64,000 nt of DNA from the NCBI RefSeq assembly GCF_021502675.1, contig NZ_JAKFHA010000009.1, positions 62,001 to 126,000 of the forward strand, given 5' to 3'. This DNA comes from Yinghuangia soli. Lineage in GTDB: Bacteria; Actinomycetota; Actinomycetes; Streptomycetales; Streptomycetaceae. The position numbers were made by a program, and so were the translations under genes. Of this stretch, positions 9,226-17,532 are shown piece by piece (within the stretch, counting starts at the first letter, position 1; every line of letters begins with the position of its first letter). The notes under the pieces were generated by a model. That model made no database searches. It was not told where the DNA came from and saw nothing but the letters and a program-made list of their open reading frames with translations.

Positions 9226-9261
9226 GGCAGGCCTCCTGGGGAGTGGGCGTGCCCCCACACT

Positions 9262-9299
9262 ACTTCGAAAATCGAAGTTCTTGCTACTCTTATCGAAGT
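9262..9299. promoter_or_regulatory. Palindromic operator between hydrolase and HxlR regulator
   Basis: A perfect 17-bp palindrome (ACTTCG-5 bp-CGAAGT) at 9262-9278 is followed by a further CGAAGT half-site at 9294-9299. It is the only AT-rich patch in the divergent intergenic region, and winged-helix regulators of this type usually bind such sites. Binding by the adjacent HxlR protein is inferred. Confidence 0.6.
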
Positions 9300-9341
9300 A
9301 GAAGTTCCGACGGCGTGCTCCCCCTACCCTGCGAGGTCCTC

Positions 9342-10049
9342 ATGGCAGCTCCGGCATCCCCGTCGCGCTCGTCGTCCGCTCCGGGCTCGGCGCGCAGGTC
9401 GTACGGCCAGGCGTGCCCGATCGCGCATGCGCTGGACATCGTGGGGGAGCGCTGGGCCCTGCTCGTGGTGCGCGAACTGCGCCTGGGCCCGCGCCGCTAC
9501 GCCGACCTGCAGGCCGCGCTGCCGGGTGCGGGCAGCAGCGTGCTGGCCCAGCGCCTGCGCGACCTGGAGGCGACCGGGGTGCTGCGGCGCCGCACATTGC
9601 CCCCGCCCGCGGCCGCCAAGGTGTACGAACTCACCGAGTGGGGCGCCGAGTTGGAACCCGTCTTCGATGCGCTGCGGACCTGGGGCATGCGGTCGCCGGT
9701 GGTCCCCCTGACCGGGGAGATCACCGCGGACACGGTGTTCCTGGGCCTGCGGGCGTTCTTCGCGGCGACTCCGGAGACGCCCTGGACCGCGTCGTTCCGG
9801 TTCGTGCTGGAGCGGGACGTCTACCGGGTGGACGTCGTCGACGGCCGGCTCGCCGGGGTCGTCCGCGGCGACACCGCGGCGGCGCCCGACGTCGAGGTCA
9901 CGGGCGACCAGCGCACCCTCCAGGCCGTACTGACGCACCAGGTACCGCTGAAGAAGGCGCTGGCCGCCGGGACCGTCGCGGTCACCGGGGGCGCGGCCGG
10001 GCCGGGACACCTGGAGCGCCTGGTCGACGCCCTGCCGCGGCGCGGCTGA
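9342..10049 (+). CDS. HxlR-family transcriptional regulator
   Basis: 235 residues. The winged helix-turn-helix reads CPIAHALDIVGERWALLVVR, then LGPRRYADLQAALPG and SSVLAQRLRDLEATGVLRRR: the classic HxlR signature with its N-terminal Cys, which senses redox or electrophiles in several family members. A C-terminal about 100-residue domain (TADTVFLGLRAFFAAT to VAVTGGAAGPGHLERLVDAL) resembles an SCP2-like sterol-binding fold that could bind a hydrophobic ligand. ATG with GAGG five bases upstream. It diverges from the alpha/beta hydrolase; autoregulation through the shared operator is likely. Confidence 0.85.
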   Translation: MAAPASPSRSSSAPGSARRSYGQACPIAHALDIVGERWALLVVRELRLGPRRYADLQAALPGAGSSVLAQRLRDLEATGVLRRRTLPPPAAAKVYELTEWGAELEPVFDALRTWGMRSPVVPLTGEITADTVFLGLRAFFAATPETPWTASFRFVLERDVYRVDVVDGRLAGVVRGDTAAAPDVEVTGDQRTLQAVLTHQVPLKKALAAGTVAVTGGAAGPGHLERLVDALPRRG

Positions 10050-10131: not shown

Positions 10132-12291
10132 TCAGCCTGCGGCCCAGCGCGCGCGTTCCGCCGCGAAGGCGGACTCGCGGCGGGCGGTGAACTCCGCGGC
10201 CTGGCGCTCCTGCTCGGCGCCGATCAGGATGTTCGCCGCGGTCAAGTCGTCCCAGGTCAGCGTGGCCTCGCGGACCTCCAGGCCGGCGCGTCCGGCGGCG
10301 ACGTCGGCGCGCAGCCGCAGCAACTCGTCGGCAGGCACCGGGCGGAACCGGAGCCGGTCGAAGAGGCGGAGCAGCCAGGGCGGTTCCTGTACACCGTCAG
10401 GAGGCGCGTCGGTGAGCCGCCAGACCGGCACGGTACGGCCGACCAGCTGATAGCCGCCGGGCCCCTCCATGCCGTACACGCACAGGTAGACCCCGCCGAT
10501 GCCGACCGCGTTCTCCGGCGTCCAGGTACGCGCCGGGTCGTACTTGGTGGTGACCAACCGGTGGCGGGGATCGAGCGGGACCGCGACGGGCGCGCCGAGA
10601 TAGACGTCGCCGAGCCCGAGGACCAGATAGGTGGCGGCTTCGACGACGGCGAAGACGTCGTCGCGGGTGCCGAGGTCGTTGACGCGCCGGATGAACTCGA
10701 CGTTGTCGGGGCACCAGGGGGCGTCGGGGCGGACGCCGCGCTGGTAGCGCTGCATGGCCTCGTGCGCGGCGGGGTCGTCCAGCGAGATGGGCAGGACGAC
10801 TTCGCGGACCGGGAGTTCGATGCCGCGCGGGTCGGGCAGGCCGGTCCAGCACTCGGCGATCCGCCCGGCGATCTCTTCGGCGATTCCGGGGGCGAGGCGG
10901 TCGTGCGGAGGGTGCGCGGGGTCGAAGGCGAGGAGCAGCGAGCGGACGCCTTCGACGGTTTCGGTGACCGCGGCGAGCGGGTTGCCGGGTGCGGTGCGGG
11001 CCGCGAGGGCTTGGGCGAGCAGGTGGATCTGCAGCCTTACGGTGAGGTCGAGGCGCGGTGGACCGGCCTCGACGAGGAGGTGGTGGTCGCCGGAGCGGCG
11101 TACCGCCAGCGCGGGCCGGAGGCCGTCGGCGGGCAGTTCCAGGAGGGCGGCCGGCCGGTCGGGCGCGGCCGCGGGGGAGTGGTCCGATGAGTGCCGGCCG
11201 TGTGCGGTGCGGTGGGCTGCGGCGCTTGCCGGGTGGGCGAGTTCGGCGGTGCGGGCGCGGTCGGCGCGGGCTGCCTCCGCGGGGGTGACGGGGACGAGGC
11301 GGACCCGGTCGTCGGGCCGGGCCTGCGCGAGTTTCCAGCGGTCCGCGCGGATGACCGCGGCCGGGACGACGAATCCGCCCAGGCTCGGGCCGTCGGGTCC
11401 GACGATGACCGGGGTGTTGCCGGACAGCATGATGCCGCCGACGGGATAGGCGCTGTCGTGGATGTTGCTGGGGTGCAGGCCCGCTTCACCGCCGTCCTCG
11501 CGGGCCCACGCGGGGGCCGGCCCGACCAGGCGTACGCCGGTGCGGTCGGCGCGGTGGTCGACGCGCCACTCGGCGGCGAAGAGGTCCCGGACGCCGTCTT
11601 CGGTGAGGTGTTCGGGGGCGCCGTGCGGGCCGGGGACGACGCGGAGTTCCCAGGTGTCGGCGAGTTCCGGGAGCAGGTCGGTGACGTCGGCGGGGGCGGT
11701 GAGGTTCTCCGCCGAGCCGACCGGAAGCGCGTCCCCCGCGGCGAGTGCCCGGCCGCCGTGCCCGCCGAACTTGCCGAGCAGGAACGTGGTGCGGCTGCCG
11801 AGGACGGCCGGGACGGCGATGCCGCCGCCGACCGCGAGGTACTGGCGCAGGCCCGGGCCGCCGGTGTCGCCCAGGTCGAGGACCTGGCCGGGGGCGACGA
11901 CGGTGACCCGACCGGGTCGGACAGGGCGTCCGTCGAGCGTGGCGTGGCCGACGGCTCCGGTGAGGCAGACCAGGGCGCGTTGCACGAAGCGCAGGCTGGG
12001 GCCGCGGAGGACGGATTCGAGTCCGGCGGCGGTGCGCGGGTTGCCGACGGCGGTGTTGGCGAGGGCGAACGAGCGGTCGTCGAATGCTCCGGAGGGCGGG
12101 ACGCCCACGCCCCACAGGCCGCGTCGTCCGTCGAGATCGACGACCAGGGTCTGGACGCCGGGGGTCAGGACGGTGAAGCCGCCGACCGGCGGCGCGGCCG
12201 GTGCCGTGCCGTGGGGCGCCGCCGGAGTTGTCGTGCGGCGGTCCGGCCCGGGCGGTGCGTGCGTGCGGGGGCCGGTGGCGACGGGGGTCAT
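10132..12291 (-). CDS. Carboxyltransferase (AHS2-AHS1) part of guanidine/urea carboxylase
   Basis: 719 residues. Seen: an AHS2/PxpC-type domain (about 37-345; [25 protein letters not shown]), a linker, an AHS1/PxpB-type domain (from about 395; [38 protein letters not shown]), and a C-terminal helix region typical of urea carboxylase just before its biotin domain. The protein stops there with no biotin-lysine motif and has no N-terminal biotin carboxylase, so it is only the carboxyltransferase half. Full-length relatives carboxylate urea or, in riboswitch-linked operons, guanidine. It overlaps the DUF1989 gene by ATGA and is last in the operon. The biotin carboxylase and carrier must come from elsewhere if the enzyme works. 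Confidence 0.85.
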
Positions 12292-12923
12292 GGCGTCCAC
12301 CCGATGAGGCGTACGGGGGTGGGGTCGTAGCCGTTGCACGGGTTGTTGAGCTGCGGGCAGTTGCTGACCATGACGAGGATGTCGCGCTCGGCGCGGAGTT
12401 CCACGTGCTTGCCGGGGGCGGAGACGCCGTCCGCGAAGGTGAGTCCGCCGTCCGGGGTGAGCGGCACGTTCATGAAGAAGTTGACGTTGTGCGTCAGGTC
12501 CCGCTTGCCGAGGCCGCGTCCCCAGGCCATGGCCTCGCGCACGAAGGTGGTGCGGCAGGCGTGCTGGTGCCGGGTGTGCTCGCCGTAGCGGACGGCGTTG
12601 CTCTCCTGAGCGCACGCGCCGCCCAGCGTGTCGTGGCGGCCGCAGGTGTCGTCGACGATCGTGGCGAGCGGGTCGAGCCCGGTGGAGAGCAGGACCGAGC
12701 CGGTGGTGAGGTAGACCGCGCCTTGTTCGCGGATGGTGTCGACGGCGCTGTAGCGGTTGGCGTAGTCGCGGGCGTCGAAGAAGAGCGTGTCGACGGCCTG
12801 GTTGCCGCACAGGTCGACGATGCGCAGGTGGGCGCCGGCCGGGAGTTCGCCGGTCCAGCCGGCCCCGGCGCCGACGGTGGCGTCGAACAGCGTGGTCGTC
12901 GCGGTGATTGCGGGTGCGGTCAT
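12288..12923 (-). CDS. DUF1989 protein, carboxyguanidine deiminase-type subunit (CgdB/CgdA-like)
   Basis: 211 residues. DUF1989 ('urea carboxylase-associated') fold: [27 protein letters not shown] with conserved Cys, an RHQHACR His/Cys cluster fit for zinc, [18 protein letters not shown], and terminal [20 protein letters not shown]. In characterised operons two such proteins form carboxyguanidine deiminase, which turns carboxyguanidine into allophanate. It is coupled by ATGA overlaps to both neighbours. The assignment to guanidine rather than urea rests on the ykkC riboswitch upstream. Confidence 0.85.
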
Positions 12924-13630
12924 GCCAGGCTCCTCTCGGTCGCGGCCAGCGCGCGGCCGGACTCCGCGCGGAACAGGCGAGCCGGGTCGTCGGGGCCCGG
13001 TGCGGGGACCGCGGCGACGGTGGCGCGGATGCGGGCCGGGGCCCAGGCCGGATTCGGGTCGAGCGGGTGCGGTGCGCTGGACAGGACCACCAACAGGTCC
13101 TGCTCGGCGCGGAGTTCGGCCCAGTCGCCGGCGGACGCATGTCCGGGGACGAAGGCGAGCGTGCCGCGTTCGTCGCCGTCCGGGACGACCTTGGTGAACA
13201 GGTTGGCGGTGGCGTGCAGGTCGCGGCGGCCGAGGCCGTGCTTCGCGAGTTCGTCGAGGAGTCCCGCGCGGGCGCTGCGCCGCCAGGCGTTGCGGTCGGC
13301 GGCGTAGTCGGAGGGTCCCCAGCGGGCGTCGAGATGGGCGTCGGTGCTATGCCCGGTGACGGCGTCGTGCCAGTCCAGGGACGAGCCGGTCAGGGTGGCC
13401 AGCGCGCGGCCCATGTCGGACATGAGGACGAGCGGCGGACGCAGGCAGGCCGACATCTGCGCCTTGAGAGTGTCGGGGACGTTGAGGCGTTCGAGGGGGT
13501 CGGCGGCCGCGAACATCAGCACGGAGACGTTGGCGCCGTCGTCGAGGCAGGTCAGGCGCAGGGCGCGGTGCCGGTTCAGGCGCACGGTCCAGGCCGCGCC
13601 CGCGGCGATGTCGTGGGCGTACGCGGTCAC
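12920..13630 (-). CDS. DUF1989 protein, second deiminase-type subunit
   Basis: 236 residues, paralogous to the downstream gene: [71 protein letters not shown] and the end-motif [13 protein letters not shown]. It lacks the dense His/Cys cluster of its partner, as expected if the two form a heteromer with one catalytic and one supporting subunit; that division is inference. It starts with GTG overlapping the permease stop (GTGA) and ends ATGA into the next gene. Confidence 0.8.
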
Positions 13631-15177
13631 GAGGCGGCCTCCGCGGGGAGCGGCAGGACCGCGGCGCCGCGGGCGCGTTCGCGGCGCAGCAGCGCGTACG
13701 CCCCGGCACCGATGGCGAGCGCGCCGGCCACGAACAGCACGGCGAAGTACTCCAGGTACCAGTGGCCGCCGGCCGGGTCGTACACCTCGGCGCGCGGCCA
13801 GCCGATGTTGACCAGCATCAGGAGGCCGTACACGACCGCGCCCGCGTTGACGGCGATGCCGAACCGGCCGAGGGAGAAGCCGTCGTGCGCGGGCAGGCGG
13901 CCGCGCAGCCGGGCGGCCAGCAGCGGGAGGGTGACCAGCAGGTAGGCGCCGTAGACCAGGACGATCGCCACCGACGTCAGCGCGGTGAACAGCTCGGCGC
14001 GGCCGACGTTGACGAGCAGCAGCGCGGCCGCAAGGACGCCGATGACCAGGGCGGGCAGCACGGGAGTGCCGGTGCGCGGCGAGACCTTGGCGAGGCGTGC
14101 GGAGCCGGGCAGCACGCCGTCCCGCGACATCGAGAAGACCAGGCGGGTGGCGGCGGTCTGGATGGCGAGCGTGCACACGAACATCGCGATGGCGACGTCG
14201 ACCAGCAGCGCCTTGCCGAGGCCGGTGCCGAGTTGGGCGGTCAGGACGTAGGGGAGGCCGCCCGCGGCCAGTTCGCCGTCCGTGACGCTGGGCGCGGCCA
14301 TGAGCGCGCCGAGCAGCAGCAGGAGGCCCGCGACGCCGGAGGCGACCAGGGCGCGGATGATGGCGCGCGGTGCGGTCCGGCGCGGGTTCTTGGTCTCCTC
14401 GGCGAGTTCGCCCGCGCTGTCGAAGCCGTACATGACGTACGCCGCCATCAGCGCGGAGACCAGGAACGCGCCGAAGTAGCTGCCGCTGCCCTCGACGCCA
14501 CCGGTGTCGGTGACCACCGACGGACCCCGCTCGGCGTGCACGAACAGCAGCGCGATCAGCAGCGCGATGCCGACAAGTTCGCAGGCCACGCCGACGCTGT
14601 TGACCAGCGACATGACCTTCACGCCGACCGCGGTGATCACCGTGGTGACGGCGATCAGGACGGTGCCCAGGAGGACGGCGTTGGTGGCGCCGTCCGACGA
14701 GGTCAGCGCGGTCTCGGTGCCGACGATCTGGAAGCCGGACCAGATGCGGGGGAGGACCACCTGCAGCGCGATGGCCGCGGCGGCCACCGAGACGATCTGC
14801 CCGATCAGCATGAGCCAGCCCGCGAACCAGCCCGTCACGCCCGTCGACAGGCGCCGCGACCACTGGTAGACGCACCCGGCGATCGGGTAGCGGGCGGCGA
14901 GTTCGGCGAAGCACAGCGCGACGAGGAGCTGCCCGGCGAACACGATCGGCCAGGTCCAGAAGAACGCCGGGCCGCCGAACGAGAACCCGAACGCGAACAG
15001 CTGGAAGACCGTGGTCAGGATCGACACGAACGAGAACCCGGCCGCGAACGATGCGAACGAGCCGAGCTTGCGGTGCAGTTGCTGCTCGTACCCGAACGAG
15101 GCGAGGTCGTGCGCGTCCGCGGCACCGGGCGCAGGGGGAGCCGGCGGCGGGCCGGACGGGGCGCTGATCGTGGTCAT
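13627..15177 (-). CDS. APC-superfamily permease (guanidine operon transporter)
   Basis: 516 residues with about 12 membrane segments. APC-family landmarks: the N-terminal FGYEQQLHRKLGSFASFAAG, GGPAFFWTWPIVFAGQLLVA, CFAELAARYPIAGCVYQWS, and YGFDSAGELAEETKNPRRTAPRAI. This subgroup regularly sits with urea-carboxylase-associated genes. Being first after a guanidine riboswitch, it probably imports guanidine or a guanidino compound; the substrate is inferred. The ATG is preceded by GGAAAGG. Confidence 0.85.
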   Translation of the reverse strand: MTTISAPSGPPPAPPAPGAADAHDLASFGYEQQLHRKLGSFASFAAGFSFVSILTTVFQLFAFGFSFGGPAFFWTWPIVFAGQLLVALCFAELAARYPIAGCVYQWSRRLSTGVTGWFAGWLMLIGQIVSVAAAAIALQVVLPRIWSGFQIVGTETALTSSDGATNAVLLGTVLIAVTTVITAVGVKVMSLVNSVGVACELVGIALLIALLFVHAERGPSVVTDTGGVEGSGSYFGAFLVSALMAAYVMYGFDSAGELAEETKNPRRTAPRAIIRALVASGVAGLLLLLGALMAAPSVTDGELAAGGLPYVLTAQLGTGLGKALLVDVAIAMFVCTLAIQTAATRLVFSMSRDGVLPGSARLAKVSPRTGTPVLPALVIGVLAAALLLVNVGRAELFTALTSVAIVLVYGAYLLVTLPLLAARLRGRLPAHDGFSLGRFGIAVNAGAVVYGLLMLVNIGWPRAEVYDPAGGHWYLEYFAVLFVAGALAIGAGAYALLRRERARGAAVLPLPAEAAS

Positions 15178-15449
15178 GGCAGGAGCCTTTCCGCGCAGGA
15201 GCCGGCCCCGTGGGGCGCGGCGCAGGGGTGGGCGCTGGAGAGAGCGGGCCGCGGCCGGGGCATAGAGGACCGGGCGGCGGCGGGCACTGCAGGAGATGCC
15301 GGAGCTGCGGGCGGCACGGCAGGACGGCGCCCGGGGTGCGGATCCGGGGCTGTTGCTGCGGCCGTCCGGAACACCGGTGCGGCGGGAGAATGCTGACGGG
15401 ACGTCACGGGCGGCTCCCCGGGACCGGGATCCGGACATGCCGGATCGAC

Positions 15450-15560
15450 CTGGCCTCCCGGGCTTTTCTCCCGCCGTGGAACGGGGCCTGGGCCCCGCCT
15501 GCGGCTCTCGGACCAGACCCGCCGGCACCTTCCGGTGCCGAGCGGCGGAACCCTAGCCGC
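15450..15560 (-). promoter_or_regulatory. Guanidine-I (ykkC) riboswitch
   Basis: On the minus strand all three conserved ykkC blocks occur in order and spacing: CTAGGGTTCCG (15556-15546), CTGGTCCGAGAG (15516-15505) and ACGG..GGGA.AAAAGCCCGGGAG (15477-15455). Stems form between them. The aptamer senses guanidinium and usually switches export, carboxylation or uptake genes on. Here about 270 bases separate it from the permease start. A 7-bp hairpin (GATCCGG/CCGGATC, 15428-15446) lies just downstream and may be part of the expression platform. Confidence 0.93.
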
Positions 15561-15701
15561 GCCCCGCCGTCGAGCGGGTCGCGTCCCAGTACAGGGACGG
15601 CCTGTTTCCGCTGGCGCCCCGGCGTGTTGCCGCCGTGTGAAAGAGATCTGACGGCGCCTCGGATGCCGACACGTGTCGTACGGCGGTCGGGCCGGCGGGC
15701 G

Positions 15702-16865
15702 TCAGATCAGGTGCGGCAGGCGGCGCCGGGTCGACCCCGGGGTGGCGCGCCGCGGGCGCTGCAGCACCAGCGCGGCGGCGTCGTCCTGCAGCGGGCCGCC
15801 GGTGTGGCCGCGCAGGTCGCTGTACAGGTGCAGCACGATGTGCTGCGGCCAGGCCCGGCTCCACCCGGCCAGCCGGGCCGCGGCGGGGTAGAACCGGCCG
15901 TCCTCGTCCCGGGCTTCGCTGATGCCGTCCGTGGTGGCGACCAGCGTGTCGCCCGGCGCGAACGGGATCTCGTGCTCCACGTACCGCACACCGCCCGGAT
16001 ACAGCGGCGCCAGGCCGAGCGGCGGAGCGATGTCGGCGAGCTCGATCTCGGTCGACGAACCGTCCCGCAGCATGATGGGCGGCGTATGCCCGCAGGTGAT
16101 CAGCCGCAGCGTGTCCGGATCGTCGAACGCCATCAGCAGCGCCGTCGCGAAGCGCTCCCCGGGCGGCCCGGTGCGTTCCGAGGTCAGCCGGTGGATCCGG
16201 CCCTCCAAGCGGGCAGCAACCTCGGTCAAATCCTTCTCGTGGTACGCCGCCTCGCGGAACGTCGCCATCAGCGCGGCAGCGGTGTTCACCGCCGGCAGGC
16301 CCTTGCCGCGCACGTCCCCGATCAGCATCCGGATGCCGTGCGGCCCGTCCACCACCGCGTAGAAGTCGCCGCCGACGAGCGTTTCCGCCTCCGCGGCCAT
16401 GTAGAGGCTCGCCAGGTCCAGCCCGGGCAGCCGCGGTGGCACCGGCTCCAGCACCGCACTCTGCAGCGTCATCGCCACCGAACGCGCATGCCGCAGCTGC
16501 GCCTCGCGGCGCAGCCTCGTCGACGTCACCCCGTACGCCACCAGGCCGAGCGCACCGATCACCGTGACGTGAATGAACTTCGAGGTGACCGTGGTGGATT
16601 CGTAGTAGGTGACCAGCACCACCGAACTCGCGGTCGCGACGGTCGCCAGCGCGGCCACCTGCCGCTTGCTGCACACACCCGCGGCGGCCGGTGCGACGAG
16701 GCCCAGCGCCACCGCCCCCGGGATCGCCGGATCGACCAGCGCGTCGATCACCGAGATCGCCACGATCGCGGCGAACGCGGCGATCGTGGCCCGGCGGTCC
16801 CCGGGCGAGGGCTCGGGGCCGACCGCCCGGCTGTCGGCGGCGCGCCGCAGGCGTCTGAGGGTCAT
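15702..16865 (-). CDS. Membrane-bound PP2C/SpoIIE-type serine phosphatase
   Basis: 387 residues. Seen: four membrane segments between about 27 and 114 forming an N-terminal sensor region, then a SpoIIE/PP2C domain with GGDFYAVVD (165-173), IGDVRGKGLPAVNTAA (182-197), a CGHTPP segment and TDGISEARDEDG near the end. These supply the metal-binding Asp residues. Such phosphatases act on anti-anti-sigma factors or other phosphoproteins in Streptomyces signalling. ATG 16865 is used; an upstream in-frame start at 17021 would add an unlikely arginine-rich leader. It stands alone, in the same direction as the guanidine operon but about 140 bases upstream of the riboswitch. Confidence 0.85.
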   Translation of the reverse strand: MTLRRLRRAADSRAVGPEPSPGDRRATIAAFAAIVAISVIDALVDPAIPGAVALGLVAPAAAGVCSKRQVAALATVATASSVVLVTYYESTTVTSKFIHVTVIGALGLVAYGVTSTRLRREAQLRHARSVAMTLQSAVLEPVPPRLPGLDLASLYMAAEAETLVGGDFYAVVDGPHGIRMLIGDVRGKGLPAVNTAAALMATFREAAYHEKDLTEVAARLEGRIHRLTSERTGPPGERFATALLMAFDDPDTLRLITCGHTPPIMLRDGSSTEIELADIAPPLGLAPLYPGGVRYVEHEIPFAPGDTLVATTDGISEARDEDGRFYPAAARLAGWSRAWPQHIVLHLYSDLRGHTGGPLQDDAAALVLQRPRRATPGSTRRRLPHLI

Positions 16866-17057
16866 GGGCGTGCCTGTCGGTCCTGTCGGTCGAGGAGACG
16901 TCCCGTCGGGTGCCCGGACGACGGGCACGTCATGGTAGCCGGGACGGAGCCGCGAGCGCCCGGCCCGACTCCGTACGCCATGGGAAAGCCCCCGACCGAC
17001 ACCCGACCAGCACCCGAACAAGCAGAAGGGCCGCGGGAGTTGCCTCCGCGGCCCTTG

Positions 17058-17132
17058 TGGTGCGCGATACTGGGATTGAACCAGTGACCCCCACAGTGTC
17101 AGTGTGGTGCTCTCCCGCTGAGCTAATCGCGC
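17058..17132 (-). tRNA. tRNA-Val (GAC)
   Basis: Cloverleaf folds with acceptor GCGCGAT/ATCGCGC, D-arm TAGCTCAGCGGGAG, anticodon stem CCACA-CTGACAC-TGTGG giving anticodon GAC, and TPsiC arm GGTTCAATCCC. Discriminator A is followed by an encoded CCA. Confidence 0.97.
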
Positions 17133-17226
17133 GGGACGGACCTTGCGATCCGCGTCGATCCTACTACTCTTCCTGCGCCCCTCATGATCAGGGCCACCGC
17201 CTCGACGGTGGCCCGAACGATCGGGG

Positions 17227-17301
17227 TGGTGCGCGATACTGGGATTGAACCAGTGACCCCCACAGTGTCAGTGTGGTGCTCTCCCGCTGAGCTAATCGCG
17301 C
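17227..17301 (-). tRNA. tRNA-Val (GAC), second identical copy
   Basis: Base-for-base identical to the first copy including the encoded CCA, about 95 bases upstream of it on the same strand. A recent tandem duplication or gene conversion is the simplest reading. Confidence 0.97.
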
Positions 17302-17341
17302 GGGGAAGATCCTCCCGGCCGGAGCCGGTTCTCACTTCTCG

Positions 17342-17412
17342 AGGTGGAGACGGGATTTGAACCCGTGTAGACGGCTTTGCAGGCCGTTGCCTCGCCTCTC
17401 GGCCACTCCACC
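17342..17412 (-). tRNA. tRNA-Cys (GCA)
   Basis: Acceptor GGTGGAG/CTCCACC, D-arm GTGGCCGAGAGGC, anticodon loop CTGCAAA giving GCA, T-arm GGGTTCAAATCCC, discriminator U. CCA is not encoded. Confidence 0.96.
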
Positions 17413-17459
17413 ATGCGCAGGTCCGCGACCCGAAGGCCTTGGTCCCACGACTTCTTCCG

Positions 17460-17532
17460 AGCGGACGACGAGATTCGAACTCGCGACCCTCACCTTGGCA
17501 AGGTGATGCTCTACCAACTGAGCCACGTCCGC
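17460..17532 (-). tRNA. tRNA-Gly (GCC)
   Basis: Acceptor GCGGACG/CGTCCGC, D-arm GGCTCAGTTGGTAGAGC, anticodon stem TCACC-TTGCCAA-GGTGA giving GCC, T-arm GAGTTCGAATCTC, discriminator U. Probably first gene of the Gly-Cys-Val-Val transcript. Confidence 0.96.

What the first reader, a model, noticed from the sequence alone, without database searches (positions are those of the whole stretch)
10132..15560. Riboswitch-controlled guanidine operon lacking the biotin enzyme parts
The ykkC aptamer, permease, both DUF1989 subunits and the AHS2-AHS1 carboxyltransferase are present and translationally coupled, but biotin carboxylase, biotin carrier and allophanate hydrolase are missing from both ends of the operon. 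Either they lie elsewhere, or another biotin carboxylase is shared, or this is a degraded or repurposed pathway.
Basis: partly seen in the sequence, partly recalled or inferred. Interest (0 to 1): 0.65.

Follow-up and report, generated by a model that had tools for sequence, protein, structure and literature searches.

The report
Biotin-less guanidine-operon carboxyltransferase with unusual residue
A guanidine-switched gene cluster in an actinobacterium makes only the middle part of a carboxylating enzyme, and the same shortened enzyme, with the same odd residue at the substrate-choosing position, recurs in other actinobacteria, so it looks like a distinct form that probably borrows its biotin parts from another enzyme rather than a decayed gene.

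Summary
In detail: Guanidine-I riboswitch, permease, two DUF1989 genes and an AHS2-AHS1 carboxyltransferase (CT), overlapping by GTGA/ATGA, with no biotin carboxylase (BC), biotin carrier (BCCP) or allophanate hydrolase (AH) nearby. Decay is unlikely: the CT belongs to a strongly supported clade of 13 stand-alone CTs from several actinobacterial families, all beside both DUF1989 genes. Eleven of 13 carry AH directly downstream. The two that do not (window species, Actinokineospora) are the two whose genomes hold a complete Asn-type urea carboxylase with its own AH, so the missing AH has an explanation. Ten of 12 stand-alone-CT genomes searched loosely hold no complete urea/guanidine carboxylase. 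The fused BC-BCCP alpha subunit of acyl-CoA carboxylases is the likeliest donor; PDB 9yx5 (title and chain names seen) describes homologous CT subunits bound to such a complex. Unexpectedly, all 13 have Met where guanidine carboxylases have Asp and urea carboxylases Asn (KlUC 1330), so by the published rule this is neither. Best reading: a trans-acting CT of a distinct subfamily feeding the guanidine/allophanate route. Its substrate and the alpha-sharing are inferred, not shown.

The parts
15453..15567 (-). Guanidine-I (ykkC) riboswitch aptamer
   Evidence: Rfam RF00442, 64.8 bits, gathering 63; the only match in the genome at E 0.1
13627..15177 (-). APC-type permease of the urea-carboxylase system, 516 aa (ATG at 15177 chosen by eye)
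   Evidence: TIGR03428 707.3 bits, cut-off 740.45; PF13520
12920..13630 (-). UAAP1 / carboxyguanidine deiminase-like subunit (DUF1989), 236 aa, GTG start
   Evidence: TIGR03425 233.5 bits, cut-off 205.95
12288..12923 (-). UAAP2 / carboxyguanidine deiminase-like subunit (DUF1989), 211 aa
   Evidence: TIGR03424 305.1 bits, cut-off 284.7
10132..12291 (-). stand-alone AHS2-AHS1 carboxyltransferase, 719 aa, no BC or BCCP domain
   Evidence: TIGR02712 positions 449-1107 only; model aligns to K. lactis urea amidolyase Z 35.9 over 647 residues
11428..11430 (-). Met288 codon, equivalent to K. lactis urea carboxylase residue 1330 (Asp in guanidine, Asn in urea carboxylases)
   Evidence: alignment to 5i8i; Met in 13 of 13 of the clade (where it is numbered 289 because that translation starts one codon earlier)

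Best explanation
The operon is a functional, guanidine-switched nitrogen pathway built around a carboxyltransferase that lacks its own biotin machinery. Shown here: the stand-alone CT is a conserved clade, and this genome's AH sits with a separate urea carboxylase. Inferred: a biotinylated alpha subunit (BC+BCCP), most likely the housekeeping acyl-CoA carboxylase alpha (AccA type), makes carboxybiotin and presents it to this CT; the CT carboxylates guanidine or a close relative; UAAP1/UAAP2 deiminate the product to allophanate; the C47 allophanate hydrolase finishes the job. The AH once stood at the end of this operon, as in the congener, and was lost because the C47 copy could replace it. The invariant Met at the selectivity position means that the CT recognises its substrate differently from classical guanidine carboxylases.
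For: Clade of 13 stand-alone CTs, 100/100 support, stem 0.88; UAAP1 and UAAP2 beside CT in 13 of 13, permease in 10; riboswitch at or above gathering in 11 of 13, 58.5 bits in a twelfth, contig cut in the thirteenth. AH next to CT in 11 of 13, absent in exactly the 2 genomes holding a full urea carboxylase; Fisher p 0.013, not corrected for kinship. The congener G001 keeps AH and shows no full urea carboxylase. No full urea carboxylase in 10 of the 12 stand-alone genomes. Fused AccA-type alpha subunits at 63-98% mutual identity in 11 of 12 genomes from which I fetched them, own genome included; a fragment in the twelfth. PDB 9yx5, titled long chain acyl-CoA carboxylase complex of M. smegmatis with MSMEG_0435-MSMEG_0436 bound, holds homologous AHS1 and AHS2 chains and AccA3. 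CT core intact: 165 positions at least 97% conserved over 131 CTs, including the Asp at KlUC 1584. dN 0.142, dS 1.078 against the congener.
Against: No direct evidence of alpha-sharing: an AccA-type subunit is expected in any actinobacterium, so co-occurrence says little. MSMEG_0435/0436 are 5-oxoprolinase-like, closer to PxpB/PxpC than to this CT, and I saw only the entry's title and chain names. Met at 1330 fails the published guanidine carboxylase rule. In the separate Asp-type stand-alone group two genomes (G163, G308) have no AH match at E 1e-70 and G271 has AH elsewhere without a full urea carboxylase at E 1e-175, so AH loss is not always compensated that way. No expression platform of the riboswitch was identified. 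The genome is a draft (96% complete, 91 contigs).
Confidence: 0.6

Rival explanations
1. In this species the BC and BCCP domains of the complete C47 urea carboxylase serve the window CT in trans, as its AH does.
For: C47 holds the only complete enzyme of the family found in the genome and the only AH match over the cut-off.
Against: 10 of 12 stand-alone genomes show no full urea carboxylase, so this cannot be the general solution.
Confidence: 0.12
2. The clade carboxylates something other than guanidine (for example a methylated or larger guanidino compound) whose breakdown or uptake goes with guanidine; the riboswitch senses guanidine as a proxy or product.
For: Met in 13 of 13 at the residue that separates guanidine (Asp) from urea (Asn) enzymes; long stem branch 0.88; a stand-alone CT from outside the class has Ile there, beside UAAP1, UAAP2 and AH. 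A guanidine operon that also handles methylguanidine is known (PMC12508155, passages).
Against: UAAP1/UAAP2/AH and a guanidine riboswitch are the standard guanidine set; no further enzyme conserved across the clade's operons was seen.
Confidence: 0.25
3. The CT works without biotin, like 5-oxoprolinase PxpB/PxpC, activating its substrate by ATP.
For: Related subunits PxpB/PxpC lack BC and BCCP (recalled); weak homology (PxpC model 150.5 bits).
Against: Far below the PxpC (500) and PxpB (145.55) cut-offs but 757.4 bits to the urea carboxylase CT; urea-carboxylase stretches are kept where the PxpC-like chain 3mml differs.
Confidence: 0.08
4. The operon is a decaying remnant.
For: AH is absent in this species and present in its congener; the riboswitch score is only just over the threshold.
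Against: Open frames, dN well below dS for CT, UAAP2 and permease; BC-less form in 13 of 13 of the clade.
Confidence: 0.05

Closest known systems
Guanidine carboxylase pathway (GC + CgdAB + AtzF) under guanidine riboswitches
   Same: riboswitch, permease, both DUF1989 subunits, homologous CT; AH adjacent in 11 of 13 relatives of the clade
   Different: no BC or BCCP in the enzyme, Met instead of Asp at KlUC 1330, AH elsewhere in this genome
Urea carboxylase / urea amidolyase (K. lactis 3VA7, 5I8I)
   Same: CT fold, Z 35.9 over 647 residues, 35% identity
   Different: BC and BCCP missing; Asn1330 replaced by Met
Actinobacterial acyl-CoA carboxylases with one alpha subunit (AccA3) shared by several beta subunits
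   Same: the arrangement inferred here: one BC-BCCP serving separate CTs; sharing described in PMC11001197 (passages)
   Different: those CT subunits act on acyl-CoA and belong to another CT family (recalled); this CT is of the AHS type
5-oxoprolinase PxpB/PxpC and MSMEG_0435/0436
   Same: AHS1/AHS2 homologues without BC/BCCP; the latter bound to an AccA3-containing complex by the title of 9yx5
   Different: separate genes; the Pxp models score far below cut-off for this CT

Membership tests
Guanidine carboxylase (rule of PMC11410670) | Asp at KlUC 1584 | tested here: met
   Asp in the GLGD motif
Guanidine carboxylase (rule of PMC11410670) | Asp at KlUC 1330 | tested here: not met
   Met; 13 of 13 in the clade
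Guanidine/urea carboxylase | one chain with BC, CT and BCCP (TIGR02712 cut-off) | tested here: not met
   757.4 bits against 1303.85, positions 449-1107 of 1201
Guanidine/urea carboxylase | biotin-dependent carboxylation of guanidine | not testable with these tools
   needs purified proteins
Carboxyguanidine deiminase CgdA/CgdB (UAAP1/UAAP2) | NCBIfam models over cut-off | tested here: met
   TIGR03424 305.1 over 284.7; TIGR03425 233.5 over 205.95
Carboxyguanidine deiminase CgdA/CgdB | place in the CgdA and CgdB clades of a DUF1989 tree (the definition in PMC11410670) | not tested
   no DUF1989 tree was built
Guanidine-I riboswitch | RF00442 at gathering score | tested here: met
   64.8 against 63
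5-oxoprolinase PxpB/PxpC | NCBIfam models over cut-off | tested here: not met
   PxpC 150.5 of 500; PxpB 27.5 of 145.55
Shared-alpha carboxylase complex | a fused BC-BCCP alpha subunit in the genome | tested here: met
   C5:48790-50547, one frame with BC and BCCP and an EAMKM motif
Shared-alpha carboxylase complex | physical and functional pairing with this CT | not testable with these tools
   only a homologous precedent, 9yx5, title and chain names

The most novel reading that the evidence does not exclude
A third kind of urea/guanidine-type carboxyltransferase: a stand-alone CT clade with an invariant hydrophobic residue at the substrate-selecting position, acting on a guanidino substrate not yet assigned to this enzyme family and driven in trans by the fatty-acid (acyl-CoA) carboxylase alpha subunit, so that lipid and nitrogen metabolism share one biotin carrier.
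Probability: 0.3. Interest if true: 0.78.

Novelty: new variant of a known kind. Interest (0 to 1): 0.6.

Why it matters
Guanidine carboxylase is described as a biotin-containing, ATP-dependent enzyme (PMC11410670, passage). If a conserved actinobacterial form runs without its own biotin parts, it would tie nitrogen scavenging to the alpha subunit used for fatty acid precursors, and would suggest a role for AHS-type CTs reported bound to such complexes. The invariant Met gives a simple test of how this family chooses between urea, guanidine and other substrates. It also warns that surveys using the Asp rule would miss these operons.

Tried and rejected
A first idea, from memory, put the Asp/Asn selectivity residue in the KYDP/KYNP motif and so made the window CT guanidine type (note 1). 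PMC11410670 (passages) and the alignment to 5i8i place it in GAINFTGD, where the window has Met. The first idea was dropped; the KYDP/KYNP position varies within the clade.

An orphan BCCP-BC pair on C13 was considered as the partner and set aside: the gene upstream at L035:7705-9546 and a small gene beside it read by eye as an acetyl-CoA carboxylase CT and a cyclase of a polyketide cluster (not tested by profile). A contig-edge frame with an AH C-terminal domain on C43 was considered as a broken AH and set aside as unproven.

A comparison of open frames in 12 loci of the clade (L042 left out; results printed for 7) showed no BC or BCCP neighbour. Beyond the operon genes it showed a SpoIIE-type gene shared by the window, L151 and weakly L167, and an amidase-like frame shared by the two Kribbella loci and weakly like AH. 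No terminator-like site was found on the coding strand of the leader, and the leader folds no better than shuffles (z -1.23).

Whether BC-less CTs occur outside Actinomycetota was not properly tested. Eleven are Actinomycetota; L114 starts at a contig end and runs on past the CT like full-length ones (752 residues), so I leave it undecided.

A search of plasmid records found 299 records with partial similarity, none covering 80% of the query; it was not followed up.

Literature: by their listings, searches showed no paper on a BC-less guanidine carboxylase or on the 9yx5 complex. The library is open-licence only, and of the papers listed I read passages of four (PMC12186494, PMC12508155, PMC11410670, PMC11001197).
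Full report
What is there. On the minus strand, 15567 to 10132, lie a Guanidine-I riboswitch (64.8 bits, gathering 63), a permease, UAAP1, UAAP2 and an AHS2-AHS1 carboxyltransferase (CT) of 719 aa. Neighbouring genes overlap by GTGA, ATGA and ATGA (read). The CT covers positions 449-1107 of the 1201-position urea carboxylase model: biotin carboxylase (BC) and biotin carrier (BCCP) are cleanly absent. BC, BCCP and allophanate hydrolase (AH) baits find nothing in the window at E 0.01.

The rest of the genome. G000 (9.7 Mb, 91 contigs, 96% complete) shows one Guanidine-I riboswitch and two DUF1989 genes, all here. Contig C47 holds a complete urea carboxylase (1641 bits) followed by the only AH match over the cut-off (625.8 bits). 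That enzyme has Asn at K. lactis position 1330, the urea type. So the missing AH has a plausible replacement, and the complete enzyme is not a second guanidine carboxylase.

The stand-alone CT is a clade, not a wreck. The nine closest loci (61-67% identity; Amycolatopsis twice, Frankiales MAGs twice, Nocardioides, Kutzneria, Kribbella twice, Actinokineospora) all have a CT without BC or BCCP in the fetched DNA. With the congener G001 (L151), G241 (L166), G175 (L167) and the window they form a clade of 13, support 100/100, stem 0.88, apart from all full-length enzymes sampled (56 rows; midpoint root). A second set of 8 stand-alone CTs (Nocardia, six genomes of family f4, and one MAG) falls elsewhere, in two places. 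BC-less CTs thus sit in three places of the best tree; well-supported branches alone force fewer changes (at least two for the full-length label), and the direction of change was not tested with an outgroup. Against the congener, dN/dS is 0.142/1.078 for CT, 0.108/0.671 for UAAP2 and 0.076/0.629 for the permease.

Operon company. UAAP1 and UAAP2 stand beside the CT in 13 of 13 (UAAP1 cut by the contig end in L042). A permease match precedes them in 10; L048 and L167 have none, and L042 is cut. The Guanidine-I riboswitch reaches gathering in 11 of 13, scores 58.5 in L151, and L042's contig starts inside UAAP1. It reaches gathering in 0 of 8 of the second set and in 1 of 7 Actinomycetota loci with full-length enzymes that I scanned. 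AH follows CT in 11 of 13 (cut by a contig end in L044); the exceptions are the window and L048. A full urea carboxylase was found in exactly those two genomes (for G241 and G175 the limit was 1e-175). Fisher p is 0.013 for the clade; 0.006 with the second set added, where in all 21 genomes the 4 with a full enzyme lack adjacent AH and 14 of the 17 without it have it. These are related genomes, so p is indicative only. The full enzymes in the four genomes are all Asn type (L034, L168, L169, L170). Against a simple rule: G163 and G308 have no AH match at 1e-70, and G271 has AH elsewhere without a full urea carboxylase.

Where could biotin come from? All 12 show BC matches in other frames, most of which I did not classify. 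I fetched alpha-subunit candidates from 12 genomes (own genome, 10 more of those, and the G159 fragment): 11 have BC and BCCP in one frame and are 63-98% identical to one another; the own-genome copy carries EAMKM. G241 and G175 were not examined for it. G158, a 3 Mb MAG of the second set, shows one BC-BCCP protein only; it is 45-51% identical to the others. Sharing of one alpha subunit (AccA3) by several CT subunits is described for mycobacteria in PMC11001197 (passages). PDB entry 9yx5, titled 'Structure of the long chain acyl-CoA carboxylase complex from Mycobacterium smegmatis with MSMEG_0435-MSMEG_0436 bound', contains AHS1, AHS2 and AccA3 chains. I saw title and chain names only. It is a precedent for an AHS-type CT docking on an AccA3 complex, not proof for this CT.

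The substrate residue. PMC11410670 (passages) requires Asp at KlUC 1584 and separates guanidine from urea carboxylases by Asp at 1330; PMC12186494 (passages) gives Asp versus Asn. In the 5i8i alignment residue 1330 is the Asn of GAINFTGD (counted). The window has Met there (Met288, 11430-11428). Over 131 CT rows: Met in 13 of 13 of the clade, Asp in 8 of 8 of the second set, Asp in 101 and Asn in 9 of 110 others. The Asp of 1584 is kept in the clade. A stand-alone CT from elsewhere in the phylum (L198, beside UAAP1, UAAP2, AH and a distant permease, no riboswitch at gathering) has Ile and joins the clade's base in a quick tree, on a long branch. A further stand-alone CT (L197) has Ala at 1330 and Glu at 1584 and no UAAP match; its role is unknown. 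By the published rule the window CT is not a guanidine carboxylase, though its operon looks like that pathway. The predicted structure (pLDDT 79.6, pTM 0.84) aligns to K. lactis urea amidolyase at Z 35.9, 3.0 A over 647 residues; residues 269-277, 585-599 and 607-613 are low in confidence, so active-site geometry was not judged.

Frequency. Stand-alone CTs: 2 of 150 in the family sample (limit 1e-175), 9 of 197 in the class sample (1e-175), 5 of 246 in the phylum sample (1e-170); the samples overlap and all include G000.

Conclusion. Shown: the anatomy, the conserved BC-less clade, the Met signature, and an AH next to an Asn-type urea carboxylase in the same genome. Inferred: trans supply of carboxybiotin by an AccA-type alpha subunit, the use of the C47 AH, and activity on guanidine or a relative. 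Novelty is that of a new variant of the guanidine carboxylase kind.

Noticed in passing
G000 C13 (L035:7321-11571): BCCP and BC genes beside what reads by eye as an acetyl-CoA carboxylase CT and a cyclase-like gene, probably in a polyketide cluster.
   Followed up: partly
L036:2-697 (G000 C43 edge): A frame with an allophanate hydrolase C-terminal domain (AH_C, 99.7 bits) at a contig start; truncated gene or separate small protein.
   Followed up: partly
G151 C1:282508-295790 (Amycolatopsis deserti genome): Two further AHS1/AHS2 pairs in the match list, one directly after a biotin carboxylase match: another BC plus AHS arrangement.
   Followed up: no
L197:8263-10443: Stand-alone CT with Ala at 1330 and Glu at 1584 and no UAAP match nearby; a divergent member of unknown role.
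   Followed up: partly
L160, L164 (G163, G308): Asp-type stand-alone CT loci with UAAP1/UAAP2 in genomes with no allophanate hydrolase match at 1e-70.
   Followed up: no
L048:5527-5631 and L167:10591-10693: The riboswitch stands directly before UAAP1, with no permease match in the locus.
   Followed up: no
window 17061-17532 and L151:16061-16491: Four-tRNA cluster upstream on the same strand, also present in the congener; between it and the riboswitch a SpoIIE-type phosphatase gene (15702-17021).
   Followed up: partly
window 9237-10049 (+): HxlR-type regulator gene convergent with the operon end, where the congener has AH.
   Followed up: partly
plasmid records H1 and H2: Similar stretches (69-70% identity, 44-54% of the query) on a Streptomyces chartreusis and a Tsukamurella plasmid record, so such operons may travel on plasmids.
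   Followed up: no
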